64,000 nt of DNA. Source: Alphaproteobacteria bacterium. Its GTDB lineage: Bacteria > Pseudomonadota > Alphaproteobacteria > TMED109. Made by a program: the position numbers and the translations under genes. This document shows, one piece after another, positions 6,111 through 11,745 of this stretch. Each line of letters opens with the position of its first letter. The first letter of the stretch is position 1. The stretch covers positions 1 through 64,000 of the forward strand of contig JAJEGJ010000020.1 in the NCBI GenBank assembly GCA_022819905.1, written 5' to 3'. The notes below the pieces were generated by a model. That model did not search any database, had not been told where the DNA came from, and saw nothing but the letters and a program-made list of their open reading frames with translations.

Positions 6111-6447
6111 GGGGCATGATAGTCATGGTGATGGATGACCGATCGACTGCACGGAACAGACGTCTGTGCGGGCAACGGGTGGCGGAGTGTCCCGCACCCC
6201 CAGTGGCCAGCAGCGATTGGTCATGACCGCCTGCACCCGCAGAGCAGCACTGACCGAAGGTGTCCATCGCGCATCGGAACTGAGTGCGACGGAACGAAGT
6301 CCGTCGTCTGCGGCGTTGCTTGGCAAACGCGAGTGTCGGATTCACGACGTTCGCTTGCGTCCCAGATGCAGGCAACCTGCGTAGTCATTGCCTGAAAGTT
6401 GCCTAGCGGGTAGTCACTCTCAATCTGCTCAAATGGGGTGTGTGCCC
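6111..6447. other. divergent intergenic region
   Basis: 337 bp between the SDR gene (minus) and the esterase (plus). It should carry promoters for both. I see no convincing -35/-10 pair, hairpin or RNA gene in it, and open frames here look like noise. Confidence 0.4.
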
Positions 6448-7110
6448 ATGGATGATTCTGCCGACGGCGGTGTTCGACCGCGCCCCTTGTCGGGGCCTCG
6501 CGTGACGCCCCGATCGCACGCGCCTGCCCGTCAACTGGTGGTGTTCCTGCACGGTTGGGGGTCGAGTGGCGACGACCTGATTCAGCTGGCCCCTCTGTTT
6601 GCTGGCGCACTGCCTGACGCCGAGTTCGTGTCACCGCACGCACCGGAGCGATGCGATCAGAACCCGGCCGGCTTTCAATGGTTTACCCTTGGGGGCGCAA
6701 ATCCGGACCGGGCGGCTGCGGCCGCGCGAGCAGTCATCGATCTCAATGCCTTTCTCGAGGCCGAACAACGACGGCTGGGGCTGGCAGAGAACCGGGTGGC
6801 GCTGGTGGGCTTCAGCCAGGGCACGATGATGGCCCTTGAACTGGGACTGCAGCGTTCGTTCGCCGGGATTCTCGGGTATTCAGGCGCTTTGCTGCCGACA
6901 GCGCGAAAGGTAAGCCAGGCCGATGTCTTCCTTGTCCACGGGGCTGCCGACGACGTACTCCCGGTTGAAGGCATGCACGCGGCGGTCGCGGAACTGGCGC
7001 CATTGGGCGTCCGCGTGCGGTACCACGTCCGACCCCGGCTGGGCCACTCGATCGACGAAGAGGGCATCGCACTCGGGGCGGACTTTCTGCGGCGACAGCT
7101 CCTGCAGTAG
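6448..7110 (+). CDS. alpha/beta hydrolase, phospholipase/carboxylesterase family
   Basis: About 220 aa, the compact carboxylesterase fold. The N-terminal oxyanion strand is VVFLHGWGSSGDDL, the nucleophile elbow GFSQG gives S123, the acid is D169 in HGAADDVLP, and the base is H200 in RLGHSID. Such enzymes hydrolyse short acyl esters or lysophospholipids. No signal peptide, so cytosolic. The start is uncertain: ATG at 6448 is chosen, with ATG 6433 and TTG 6388 as in-frame alternatives; none has a strong Shine-Dalgarno and residues before about 25 are not conserved in kind. Confidence 0.88.
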   Translation: MDDSADGGVRPRPLSGPRVTPRSHAPARQLVVFLHGWGSSGDDLIQLAPLFAGALPDAEFVSPHAPERCDQNPAGFQWFTLGGANPDRAAAAARAVIDLNAFLEAEQRRLGLAENRVALVGFSQGTMMALELGLQRSFAGILGYSGALLPTARKVSQADVFLVHGAADDVLPVEGMHAAVAELAPLGVRVRYHVRPRLGHSIDEEGIALGADFLRRQLLQ

Positions 7111-7172
7111 GCGTTCGGTGTTCCTCGGTTTCGTGTGCTAACAATTGCAGCAGGTAGGGCGAGGATCGGACC

Positions 7173-7553
7173 ATGAACGACGAACGTTACCGCCGGGGCG
7201 ACGACAGCCTGCAGGAGATCGCCGGTCTCTGGGAGCGCACTAGTGCGAATGGCCGTGAGTACATCGGCGGGCGCACATCGGACGACGAAGACATCACGAT
7301 TCCGGCCGGATCATTCGTGATGGTGTTCCCGAACGACAGCGAGAATCCCCGTGCGCCGGCGTTTCGGCTGCTGTTTTCCCCGCCGCGCGATGATGGACCG
7401 CGGGCGGCACCACCCACGAAAGGCAGGTTCGACCGCTTCAAGGGTGGCGCCAAACCGCAGGAATCGTATTCGGCTGGTGAGCCGGTCCAGGGGAATCCAA
7501 TGACGCACGCAGCGCCCGGCGACGACATTCAGGACGACGACATCCCGTTTTAG
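7173..7553 (+). CDS. small protein of unknown function with an SSB-like DDDIPF C-terminus
   Basis: A 126-aa protein, ATG start, 62 bp after the esterase. Residues 19-32 (LWERTSANGREYIG) and 45-67 (SFVMVFPN, then APAFRLLF) look like the small beta-barrel type found in DUF736-like proteins; that likeness is from memory. After a Gly/Pro/Arg linker the chain ends DDIQDDDIPF, and its last six residues are identical to the tip of E. coli SSB, which recruits repair and replication proteins. It is not itself a canonical SSB: there is no recognisable full-length SSB OB domain. The function is unknown; a DNA-metabolism role is inferred from the tail. Confidence 0.8.
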   Translation: MNDERYRRGDDSLQEIAGLWERTSANGREYIGGRTSDDEDITIPAGSFVMVFPNDSENPRAPAFRLLFSPPRDDGPRAAPPTKGRFDRFKGGAKPQESYSAGEPVQGNPMTHAAPGDDIQDDDIPF

Positions 7554-7681: not shown

Positions 7682-8350
7682 TCAGCCTTCCACGGCCACG
7701 CCGATGATGAAGAGAACCGAATAGTCCTGCTTGTTGCAGCCATCGATCGGCGGCATCAGGCCTCCTGGAGCCACCGGGAACTCGGTCATTTGCGCCTTGG
7801 CTGGCGAGCACGGGCTGTCGGGGGTCGCTGGCGTGTAGCGTGCCGACCGGCATCGCAGATGCGTCACGTCGTGGATTGTGGCGTTGCCCCGTAGCTCCCA
7901 GCGCTGATCACCGTCCTGGTCCATGGGATGGACCGTCAGCACGGTCGTGACCTCGCGTCCGCCAGTGACAACGTACTGGCCGGGAGGAAGCGGAAATTGC
8001 GGCTTCTCCATGATCAGACCGTTTTCTTCCACCCACCAGTCCGCCTCGTCGAATTTCCACCGGGCCGGCGCGACTCCGCCTGCGGCCTGCAATCGCTCGT
8101 AGTGCTTCAGCCACACCCCTCGCGGGCCCGGGTCCAATCGCCAGACCCCCCACTGTTGCGCGCCACTCCCCGAGTTCGCACCCGGGTCACCCAATGCGGC
8201 GATGAATTGCGGGCGAATCTGCTTGAATCTTGTCTCGTCATCACTGGCTGCCTGAACCGACTGTCCGGCAGTGACCATGATTGCGAGCAGCCCAACGGCC
8301 CAGAGTGCGCAGGGGATCAGGCGTCGTGTGGTGGTTGAGGGCGGCAACAC
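7682..8350 (-). CDS. secreted protein of unknown function
   Basis: A 222-aa protein with an N-terminal signal peptide (basic start, hydrophobic about residues 11-28, likely cleavage after SVQA). The mature part is Trp-rich (WGVWRL, ARWKF, ADWWVEENG) with a beta-rich stretch LPPGQYVVTGGREVTTVLTVH and three cysteines (two close together near residue 170-185, one in DGCNKQ). It is predicted periplasmic or exported. I do not recognise the family. It stands alone, with a 382-bp gap upstream of its start. Confidence 0.72.
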   Translation of the reverse strand: MLPPSTTTRRLIPCALWAVGLLAIMVTAGQSVQAASDDETRFKQIRPQFIAALGDPGANSGSGAQQWGVWRLDPGPRGVWLKHYERLQAAGGVAPARWKFDEADWWVEENGLIMEKPQFPLPPGQYVVTGGREVTTVLTVHPMDQDGDQRWELRGNATIHDVTHLRCRSARYTPATPDSPCSPAKAQMTEFPVAPGGLMPPIDGCNKQDYSVLFIIGVAVEG

Positions 8351-8732: not shown

Positions 8733-9977
8733 CTAGATGCTGCCCCCTGCACGCAGGCGCTGCACTTCTTGAGAGCTCTTCCCCAGGACGTCACGGAGAA
8801 TCGAATCGGTATCGCCGCCCAGCGCCGGCGCGGCTCCCCGGTACCGCACGGGCGTTCGGGACAGCCGGATGGGATTCCCGGGACTCGGGACGGTGCCGCC
8901 GTTTGCGTGTGGGAGCTCGATGCGCATCCCGCGTGCTCTTGTCTGTTCAAGGTTGAGGGCGTCGAGCACGGTATTCACCGGTGCAAACGGAATGTCCGCA
9001 GCCGTGAGGGCGGCGTCCCAGTGGCTGAACGCCTGATCACGCATTTGGTTCTCGATGAGGCCGTCCAGGACCTCCCGGTGCTGCAACCGGTCACGGTTGG
9101 TCGCGAAACGGGAATCTGTGGCCAGGTCGGGAAGTCCGATCGCTGAGGCAAAGCGGGCGAATTGCGCGTTGTTGCCGACGGCAACCACCATGGGGCGATC
9201 TGCGGTCGGGTACAGGCGATAGGGGACCACATGCGGGTGCGCGTTGCCGAGGCGGGGTGGCGACGCGCCCGTGATCAATCCGGAGATCGCCATCATCGAG
9301 AGACCGGCGATCGTGGAATCCAGCAACGCGAGATCGATGTGCTGGCCCTGCCCGCTGCGCTCGCGCTCCAGGATGGCAGCCAGCACCGCCTGGACGGCGT
9401 ACATGCCGGTAAAGAGGTCGCTGACCGCCAGTCCCGTCTTGGTCGGACCACCGCCCGGCCGGTCGTCAGCTTCGCCGGTGAGGCTCATGAGCCCGCCCTC
9501 GGCCTGGATCATGAAGTCGTAGCCGGGCCGCATCCGTGCCGGCCCTGTCTGGCCGAAGCCAGTGATCGAGCAGTAGATCAGGCGCGGGTTGACGGCGGCA
9601 AGCGACTCGTAGTCCAGGCCGAAGCGGGCCAGTCCGCCCACGCGGTAATTCTCGACCAGCACGTCGGACTGGCCAGCCAGTTCCCTGATGATCCGCTGTC
9701 CGTCGGGGTCAGCCAGGTTGACGGTAATGGACCGCTTGCCGCGGTTCGCCGACTGGAAGTAGGCGCTTTCGCCCGGCCCCTCACCGGTCTCCATCTGCAG
9801 GAACGGCGGCCCCCAGTGACGCGTGTCATCGCCGGTGCCGGGCCGTTCGACCTTGATGACCTCTGCGCCGAGATCCCCGAGACACTGGGCGCACCAGGGC
9901 CCGGCGAGAACCCGACTGAGGTCAAGCACTCGTATACCTTCAAGCGTTTCCGGCACAAACTTCTCCTTGCGACACAT
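8733..9977 (-). CDS. CaiB/BaiF family (class III) CoA-transferase
   Basis: About 414 aa from ATG 9977 (MCRKEKF); a TTG nine codons upstream is possible. It has the family opening LEGIRVLDLSRVLAGPWCAQ, the CoA-binding GAEVIKVERPGTGDDTR, the QSANRGKRSITVNL segment and the catalytic Asp in GLAVSDLFTG (D187 counting from this start). Class III enzymes move CoA between carboxylates through an Asp-CoA thioester. The substrate is not readable; formyl-CoA/oxalate, carnitine and succinyl-CoA-dependent members look alike. It is divergent from the HNH gene, with about 100 bp between them. Confidence 0.92.
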   Translation of the reverse strand: MCRKEKFVPETLEGIRVLDLSRVLAGPWCAQCLGDLGAEVIKVERPGTGDDTRHWGPPFLQMETGEGPGESAYFQSANRGKRSITVNLADPDGQRIIRELAGQSDVLVENYRVGGLARFGLDYESLAAVNPRLIYCSITGFGQTGPARMRPGYDFMIQAEGGLMSLTGEADDRPGGGPTKTGLAVSDLFTGMYAVQAVLAAILERERSGQGQHIDLALLDSTIAGLSMMAISGLITGASPPRLGNAHPHVVPYRLYPTADRPMVVAVGNNAQFARFASAIGLPDLATDSRFATNRDRLQHREVLDGLIENQMRDQAFSHWDAALTAADIPFAPVNTVLDALNLEQTRARGMRIELPHANGGTVPSPGNPIRLSRTPVRYRGAAPALGGDTDSILRDVLGKSSQEVQRLRAGGSI

Positions 9978-10084
9978 TTCCGAGCCGCGCGCATGGTGTC
10001 CCAAACTCCGACGCTCTTCTATACACTTGCCGCCGGAACTGCCGGTAACGGATCGGGAAACACGTGGTGGCGCTCGAGCTTCAC

Positions 10085-10630
10085 ATGAATCCGGCGCTGG
10101 TACTTAACGCCGACTATCGGCCGCTCCGGTACTTCCCACTGTCGCTGTTGCCCTGGCAGGACACGGTGCGGGCCGTGTTTCTTGAGCGGGTCAGCATCGT
10201 CGCCGAGTACGATCAGGTGGTCCGGTCGACCACGTCGTCGATGCGGCTTCCCAGCGTGGTGGCGCTCAAGCGATACATCAAGGGCAATCGGACCCCCGCC
10301 TTCACGCGCTTCAACCTGTTTCTTCGAGACCGGTTCACGTGTCAGTACTGCGGGGCCCGTGAACCCGTGTCCGACCTCACGTTCGATCATATCCTGCCGA
10401 AATCCAGGGGAGGGCGGACCTCCTGGGACAACGTGGTCGCCGCTTGCGCTCCCTGCAACTTCGTGAAGGGCAATCATCTTCTCGACGAGATCGGAATGCG
10501 CCTGATCCGGGAGCCCAGGGCGCCGACCGAGCGTGAACTTCATGCGCGCGCGCCGGGCTTTCCCCCCAACTACCTGCACGAGAGTTGGCGGGACTACCTG
10601 TATTGGGATACCGAACTCGAATCCGACTGA
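10085..10630 (+). CDS. HNH endonuclease family protein
   Basis: About 181 aa from ATG 10085 (MNPALVLNADYRPL), preferred over a GTG seven codons earlier because the family begins with this strand. The HNH nuclease core follows: a zinc-type pair CQYC near residue 100, DHILPKSRGG (catalytic His), WDNVVAAC and CNFVKGN. These free-standing HNH proteins are widespread in alphaproteobacteria as chromosomal genes of uncertain role, with no methylase or restriction partner, and none is adjacent here. The C-terminus has the ESWRDYLYWDTEL segment common in the group. Confidence 0.88.
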   Translation: MNPALVLNADYRPLRYFPLSLLPWQDTVRAVFLERVSIVAEYDQVVRSTTSSMRLPSVVALKRYIKGNRTPAFTRFNLFLRDRFTCQYCGAREPVSDLTFDHILPKSRGGRTSWDNVVAACAPCNFVKGNHLLDEIGMRLIREPRAPTERELHARAPGFPPNYLHESWRDYLYWDTELESD

Positions 10631-10878
10631 CCGGGTCCCGTTTCGGCTCCATGAGGCGATGAAACGGCCTTGTGGCGGCGCGGCGGGCCGGGTTTGGGCC
10701 GCGCACTGGAAGTCCACTGTGTTGACCGGCGGGCTGCTCGTTGCTGTGGTCGTGGCGCGCGGACCCGCGCCAGCCGGTGGCCGCACCTGACGATGCACGA
10801 ATGACGGTGTGCCACCGCAAGCAGAATGGAATAACCTGAAGTTGGATCTCGTGCTCTGATCCAAAGGAGGGCCCGGCT

Positions 10879-11745
10879 ATGCCGACCTTGACCGATGAGC
10901 AGCGGCGCCAGTGGGCGGTAGACGGTTACATCCACTTGAAGGGAGCATTGGATCCCCGCGAAGTTGCGCTGTACAGCGAATTGATCGACTCGATCCGGCA
11001 TCAGCCGGGATGGGAGCCCACGCCGGACGTGCCGCGCGGTCATTACGCCTGGGTGGAGCGCAACCCGACCGCGGACGACCCCAACTCGTTCATGGACCGG
11101 CGGGACATCATGGGGTACGCGCAGCCCTTCCTGGACATGGTCGACCGGCCCAACGTGTTCGACCGGATCCTGGAGTTGATGGGGCCCTACATCGTCCTCA
11201 GCATGACGCAGGCCATCGTTCGGGCTCCGACGACAGAGTTCGCCGGCTTCACGCACACGGATGGGGGCGAGGCGCTCCGAAGGATCCGCGTGACCGAAAC
11301 CAGCAAGCCGCTCGCGATGAAGGCCCTGTACCTGCTCACCGATGTCGAGGGAACGGACTGCGGCAACTTCACGGTCTTCCCGGGAAGTCATCTTCGGCAG
11401 ATCCCGTTCGACTGCGACGCCGCGCCCACCCCCCACACGCCGGGAGCTGTCCAGCTGGGCGGCGAGGCCGGCGACTGCTACCTGTTCAGCCACGCGCTGT
11501 GGCATGGGCCGGCGCCGAATCACTCCGGCAAGGGTCGCAAGACACTGCTCTACAACTACGCGCAGATGTTCCTGAAGACGTACGACTTTCCCACCATGAC
11601 CGGCGTCATGGACTCATGTACGCCGCGCCAGCGTCGACTTCTGGGTGATCTCGGGCACGACCCGCGACCGGGCGATTACTTCTACGTCCCGGACGATCAG
11701 GAGGAGGTCATCTACGAACAACCGCGGGCCAGACAGGCGGCCTGA
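10879..11745 (+). CDS. phytanoyl-CoA dioxygenase (PhyH) family protein
   Basis: A 288-aa Fe(II)/2-oxoglutarate dioxygenase. The iron site is H126-T-D128 in the FTHTDGG motif and a distal His in LFSHALWHG (H209 best fits); R220 in GKGRKT is the likely 2-oxoglutarate anchor. FPGSH and GDCYLF are typical PhyH strands. The start is firm: AAAGGAGG lies 8-10 bp upstream of the ATG. PhyH proteins hydroxylate varied lipids and small metabolites and the substrate here is unknown. A second dioxygenase of the superfamily, TauD-type, lies at 25443-26312. Confidence 0.92.
   Translation: MPTLTDEQRRQWAVDGYIHLKGALDPREVALYSELIDSIRHQPGWEPTPDVPRGHYAWVERNPTADDPNSFMDRRDIMGYAQPFLDMVDRPNVFDRILELMGPYIVLSMTQAIVRAPTTEFAGFTHTDGGEALRRIRVTETSKPLAMKALYLLTDVEGTDCGNFTVFPGSHLRQIPFDCDAAPTPHTPGAVQLGGEAGDCYLFSHALWHGPAPNHSGKGRKTLLYNYAQMFLKTYDFPTMTGVMDSCTPRQRRLLGDLGHDPRPGDYFYVPDDQEEVIYEQPRARQAA

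What the first reader, a model, noticed from the sequence alone, without database searches (positions are those of the whole stretch)
7173..7553. A small non-SSB protein ends in the exact SSB interaction tip DDDIPF
The 126-aa protein has a beta-rich N-terminal part, a Gly/Pro linker and the terminal DDIQDDDIPF. The last six residues equal those of E. coli SSB, the peptide that binds RecO, PriA, RecQ, ExoI and polymerase chi. A tip at the exact C-terminus is unlikely by chance in a linker-plus-domain layout. It suggests an unnoticed chromosomal ssDNA- or RNA-associated hub protein. Domain likeness to DUF736 is from memory.
Basis: partly seen in the sequence, partly recalled or inferred. Interest (0 to 1): 0.6.

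Follow-up and report, generated by a model that had tools for sequence, protein, structure and literature searches.

The report
Chromosomal non-SSB protein with SSB tip
A small conserved chromosomal protein, found so far in only one genus of uncultured alphaproteobacteria, ends in exactly the six amino acids with which the main single-stranded-DNA-binding protein recruits repair and replication enzymes, and is probably a distant, tip-bearing relative of a mobile-element family of unknown function (DUF736); what it does has not been tested.

Summary
Window 7173-7553 (+) encodes 126 aa ending DDIQDDDIPF, the only exact DDIPF-stop in the genome. All 7 genomes of the genus carry the gene at the same chromosomal spot under strong purifying selection: pN/pS is 0.03 in the domain, 0.28 in the linker and 0 in the tip (46 synonymous, no non-synonymous differences). 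The tip motif is real: in 190 alphaproteobacterial genomes DDDIPF-stop occurs 61 times against 0 for the reversed control; 56 of the 61 are SSBs or cut-off SSB-like tails.

The protein is not an SSB (no PF00436 match). Its domain most resembles the second half of DUF736, but only weakly. DUF736 in turn is clearly related, tips removed, to a widespread phage family of about 90 aa (labelled 'single strand DNA binding protein' in PHROGs, acidic-[I/V/L]PF tips, often beside YqaJ/ERF genes). One DUF736 protein in a corticovirus-like prophage ends DLDDDIPF.

Best reading: a domesticated, DUF736-like protein that docks on SSB-client enzymes. DNA binding is inferred and uncertain, because the core is acidic. 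SSB in this genus ends DEEVPF, whereas four sister-genus genomes end DDDIPF/EDDIPF. New variant of a known kind.

The parts
7173..7553 (+). 126-aa tip-bearing protein (P0001), whole CDS with stop
   Evidence: orthologs in all 7 genus genomes; overall pN/pS 0.12
7161..7164 (+). GAGG, Shine-Dalgarno-like, 8 bases before the ATG
   Evidence: sequence
7209..7397 (+). residues 13-75: conserved domain (LQEIAGLWERTSANGREYIGGR...SFVMVFPNDSENPRAPAFRLLFSPPRDDG), DUF736-like
   Evidence: pN/pS 0.03
7398..7520 (+). residues 76-116: variable Gly/Pro/Ser/Ala-rich linker
   Evidence: pN/pS 0.28; composition
7419..7460 (+). residues 83-96 KGRFDRFKGGAKPQ: near-invariant basic/aromatic stretch inside the linker
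   Evidence: alignment A1
7521..7550 (+). residues 117-126 DDIQDDDIPF: SSB-Ct-type tip, invariant in 7 genomes, only synonymous differences
6385..7110 (+). upstream same-strand Abhydrolase_2 (phospholipase/carboxylesterase) ORF, start uncertain, 62 bp before the tip protein; possible operon partner
   Evidence: pair conserved in the genus; hydrolase present but no tip protein beside it in 28 other alphaproteobacteria

Best explanation
P0001 is a chromosomally fixed, genus-specific protein built like an SSB without being one: a small DUF736-like beta domain, a flexible linker with a basic/aromatic patch, and a genuine SSB-Ct peptide (DDDIPF). The tip most likely docks into the SSB-Ct pocket of client enzymes such as RecO, and the domain and basic patch place it at, or near, ssDNA or a partner. 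It would thereby act as an accessory recruiter of repair and replication proteins. Shown here: the tip, its conservation, synteny and selection, absence of SSB homology, and the presence of RecO in all 7 genomes. Inferred: docking, DNA contact and the recruiting role. The DUF736 link is suggestive only.
For: The tip is exact and selected: 0 non-synonymous against 46 synonymous differences, 61 against 0 for the reversed control across genomes, nearly all in SSBs. Orthologs with synteny occur in all 7 genus genomes. The domain is under strong constraint (0.03) with a loose linker (0.28), the constraint pattern expected of an SSB-like layout. The domain resembles DUF736: only Pfam hit, E 0.26; only plasmid hit is a DUF736 protein; hhalign score reached by 2 of 800 shuffles; reversed and SSB controls negative. 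DUF736 itself is related to a phage family labelled ssDNA-binding (tips removed, hhalign E 5e-7, 0 of 150 shuffles), whose members end in acidic-[ILV]PF tips and often lie beside YqaJ/ERF genes. A DUF736 protein with tip DLDDDIPF sits in a PM2-like prophage. DUF736 genes are present on all ICEMlSym-like conjugative elements surveyed in Mesorhizobium (PMC8627217). RecO is present in all 7 genomes.
Against: The core domain is acidic (9 K+R, 15 D+E). The neighbourhood is metabolic (SDR, CoA-transferase, PhyH, hydrolase), not repair. The DUF736 link is below Pfam's cut-off, and the AlphaFold model is poor. No orthologs are known outside the genus. The 'ssDNA-binding' label of the phage family may itself come from its tip. 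Alignment of P0001 with the phage family covers only the W-TS-G-Y hairpin.
Confidence: 0.5

Rival explanations
1. Decoy or regulator: P0001 does not bind DNA. It displays a free SSB tip that occupies the SSB-Ct pocket of client enzymes and so limits or re-times their recruitment by SSB.
For: Acidic core; non-repair neighbourhood; exact canonical tip while the genus SSB ends DEEVPF.
Against: The basic/aromatic stretch KGRFDRFKGGAKPQ in the linker is near-invariant; related phage proteins sit in recombination cassettes.
Confidence: 0.25
2. The tip does not act as an SSB-Ct; the C-terminus serves another partner (for example the adjacent hydrolase, or a degradation or localisation signal) and resembles SSB by convergence.
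For: Tightly linked conserved hydrolase gene 62 bp upstream; no repair genes nearby.
Against: DDDIPF at a C-terminus is almost confined to SSBs in this class and absent in the control; the tip is invariant while the linker drifts.
Confidence: 0.2
3. Remnant of a prophage or plasmid SSB-like gene without present function.
For: Nearest families are phage or plasmid borne.
Against: pN/pS 0.03 in the domain and 0 in the tip; same locus in 7 genomes with no phage genes beside it.
Confidence: 0.04

Closest known systems
Bacterial SSB (PF00436) and its SSB-Ct tip
   Same: Exact C-terminal DDDIPF after a flexible linker; tip invariant.
   Different: No SSB domain detected; separate from the genome's own SSBs, whose main copy ends DEEVPF.
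DUF736 (PF05284), mobile-element protein of unknown function
   Same: W-[KR]-TS-xx-G-REY hairpin and following strands in the order of the DUF736 C-terminal half; only Pfam hit of the isolated domain; a DUF736 protein with DLDDDIPF exists (L061).
   Different: Below Pfam cut-off (11.6 against 22.1 bits); lacks the first half of DUF736; chromosomal, single copy; of the DUF736 proteins fetched only L061 has a tip.
Phage small 'single strand DNA binding protein' families phrog_18154 / phrog_7364
   Same: Small proteins with a W-hairpin motif, linker and acidic-[ILV]PF tip.
   Different: The order of the two motif halves appears reversed relative to P0001; P0001 itself does not hit these PHROGs; phage borne, often beside YqaJ/ERF genes.

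Membership tests
SSB (PF00436) | SSB OB-fold domain by profile | tested here: not met
   no Pfam hit at E<=10; own-genome PF00436 search finds three other loci, not this one
SSB (PF00436) | Acidic C-terminal tip ending [ILV]PF | tested here: met
SSB (PF00436) | ssDNA binding and tetramer or dimer assembly | not testable with these tools
   needs purified protein
DUF736 (PF05284) | Pfam gathering score 22.1 bits | tested here: not met
   11.6 bits, E 0.26, only Pfam family listed
DUF736 (PF05284) | Remote homology by profile-profile comparison | tested here: inconclusive
   hhalign E 0.0016, 2 of 800 shuffles reach the score; reversed and SSB controls negative
DUF736 (PF05284) | Full two-part domain (about 99 positions) | tested here: not met
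   only the second half aligns
Phage small tip proteins (phrog_18154/7364) | PHROG profile match | tested here: not met
   only a weak SSB-tail hit (phrog_44, E 0.044) for the whole protein, none for the domain
Phage small tip proteins (phrog_18154/7364) | C-terminal acidic-[ILV]PF tip | tested here: met

The most novel reading that the evidence does not exclude
In this genus the canonical SSB-Ct has been partly handed over: SSB drifted to DEEVPF while a separate DUF736-like protein carries the ancestral DDDIPF, so that part of the SSB interactome (for example RecO or PriA) is recruited through a second, non-SSB tip carrier, giving a two-hub system in a bacterial chromosome.
Probability: 0.12. 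Interest if true: 0.75.

Novelty: new variant of a known kind. Interest (0 to 1): 0.48.

Why it matters
The SSB tip is usually thought of as belonging to SSB. A vertically inherited, selected, non-SSB chromosomal carrier would be a second docking hub, or a built-in competitor, for genome-maintenance enzymes. The same analysis also gives the widespread mobile-element family DUF736 a testable function: it is clearly related to a phage family labelled ssDNA-binding, and at least one DUF736 protein carries the SSB tip itself.

Tried and rejected
Single-protein and A1-profile searches of 97 and 385 genomes found no orthologs outside the genus; weak hits (E 0.003-1) were short and partial. PDB, PHROGs and NCBIfam searches gave nothing for the domain. 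A degenerate W-hairpin DNA pattern in viral contigs was first mis-framed; the corrected scan returned only unrelated proteins. AlphaFold of P0001 is too poor to use (pLDDT 52.7) and its fold search found nothing significant. The AlphaFold model of the phage family (pLDDT 64.5, four strands) matches phage proteins, among them one named DUF736 and one named single stranded DNA-binding, and no solved structure at E<=0.001. The minus-strand ORF 7187-7528 was set aside because the + frame explains the substitution pattern. The Campylobacter phage hit (E 10) was not pursued. The first 150-shuffle test (0 of 150) was too small; the larger run gave 2 of 800, which is the figure used.

Full report
The observation. 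The ORF at 7173-7553 (+) encodes 126 residues ending DDIQDDDIPF, preceded by a GAGG 8 bases before the ATG. The DDIPF-stop pattern is unique in the genome. By composition the exact tip is expected at about 6e-5 per proteome.

Is the tip a real SSB-type motif? In 190 Alphaproteobacteria genomes DDDIPF-stop occurs 61 times and the reversed control 0 times. Of the 58 newly extracted ORFs, 54 match SSB and 2 are SSB-like tails at contig ends; two are other proteins (L253, L278). The remaining three of the 61 are two copies of this gene and one DUF736 protein. So the motif is nearly SSB-specific in this class, and non-SSB carriers are rare.

Distribution and selection. All 7 genomes of the genus have it at 87-98% identity with the tip invariant, in the same gene order as far as the contigs reach: EtfB-like gene, P450-like gene, SDR, hydrolase, P0001, an unknown gene, CoA-transferase (the EtfB-like and P450-like names are from sequence recognition, not tested). 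No match was found in 21 genomes of other genera of the family, nor elsewhere in the class. Record titles are Alphaproteobacteria/Rhodospirillales MAGs. Over 21 pairs pN/pS is 0.21 (residues 1-12), 0.03 (13-75), 0.28 (76-116) and 0 (117-126: 46 synonymous, 0 non-synonymous). This is a working protein with two frozen parts joined by a drifting linker. Within the linker KGRFDRFKGGAKPQ stays near-invariant.

What the domain is. It is not an SSB domain. As an isolated stretch its only Pfam hit is DUF736, at E 0.26. Its only plasmid-collection hit is a DUF736 protein, at E 9, 84% coverage. hhalign against 12 DUF736 proteins aligns 55 columns in the DUF736 second half, with the W-TS-G-REY hairpin in register; the score is reached by 2 of 800 column shuffles, and reversed DUF736 and SSB alignments give nothing. 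I regard homology as likely but unproven. The second half of the P0001 domain (NDSENPRAPAFRLL) also resembles the first part of DUF736 (SENAPDFRV), so a rearranged order is possible.

The wider group. Viral contigs carry many DDDIPF-stop proteins besides SSB. One set of 11 (alignment A3, about 90 aa) hits phrog_18154 (10 of 11) and phrog_7364 (9 of 11), both named single strand DNA binding protein, and DUF736 weakly (3 of 11, best 0.0064). With tips cut off, A3 and DUF736 match at hhalign E 5e-7, score 40 against a shuffle maximum of 16. Members are annotated as ssDNA-binding in Vibrio and Acinetobacter phages. In a sample of 80 close homologs nearly all ends seen are acidic-[ILV]PF or close variants. 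YqaJ exonuclease is found in 40 and ERF in 19 of 91 loci, many of which are short; in L332 the tip gene overlaps the YqaJ gene. An AlphaFold model of this family (four strands, pLDDT 64.5) finds phage proteins, among them ones named DUF736 and single stranded DNA-binding protein, but no solved structure.

DUF736 itself. L061 is a DUF736 member (E 1.2e-8) ending DLDDDIPF, in a stretch with PM2-type coat protein P2 and a HerA-like ATPase. DUF736 genes sit beside traG/traD/traC/traA on a Pararhizobium plasmid, and are present on all ICEMlSym-like elements surveyed in Mesorhizobium (PMC8627217). Together these suggest, by inference, that the DUF736 group works on ssDNA.

SSB in this genus. The main SSB ends DEEVPF in all 7 genomes, while four genomes from other genera of the family, without P0001, end DDDIPF or EDDIPF. 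This is one evolutionary change in one clade, so it is a correlation with no statistical weight, but it is directly testable.

Mechanism. Tip docking onto SSB-Ct clients is the most likely function (RecO is present in all 7 genomes). Whether the rest binds DNA is open: the core is acidic, the linker patch basic. A decoy role is the main rival.

Verdict. Observation confirmed; interpretation partly supported; new variant of a known kind.

Noticed in passing
L048, L311-L316 (SSB loci of the genus): The main SSB of all 7 genus genomes ends DEEVPF, while four genomes of other genera in the family end DDDIPF/EDDIPF.
   Followed up: partly
L049, L050, L317-L324: Most genomes of the genus carry extra SSB paralogs without any acidic tip, several ending in DWA or GWA.
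   Followed up: no
L410:5899-6384 and 9038-10984: DUF736 protein with C-terminal DLDDDIPF in a corticovirus (PM2)-like prophage with P2 coat protein and a HerA-like ATPase.
   Followed up: partly
L332:1781-4255 and similar viral loci: Phage tip proteins of the phrog_18154 type lie next to, and can overlap, YqaJ exonuclease, with ERF annealase upstream; relatives in phages phiVC8, VP2 and SH-Ab 15497 are annotated as ssDNA-binding.
   Followed up: partly
L253 and L278: Two further non-SSB alphaproteobacterial open frames (227 and 172 aa) end exactly in DDDIPF; unrelated to each other and to P0001 by eye.
   Followed up: no
window 7682-8350 (-): Conserved 222-aa protein with an apparent signal peptide (by eye) and no Pfam match, next to P0001 on the opposite strand in the genus.
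   Followed up: no
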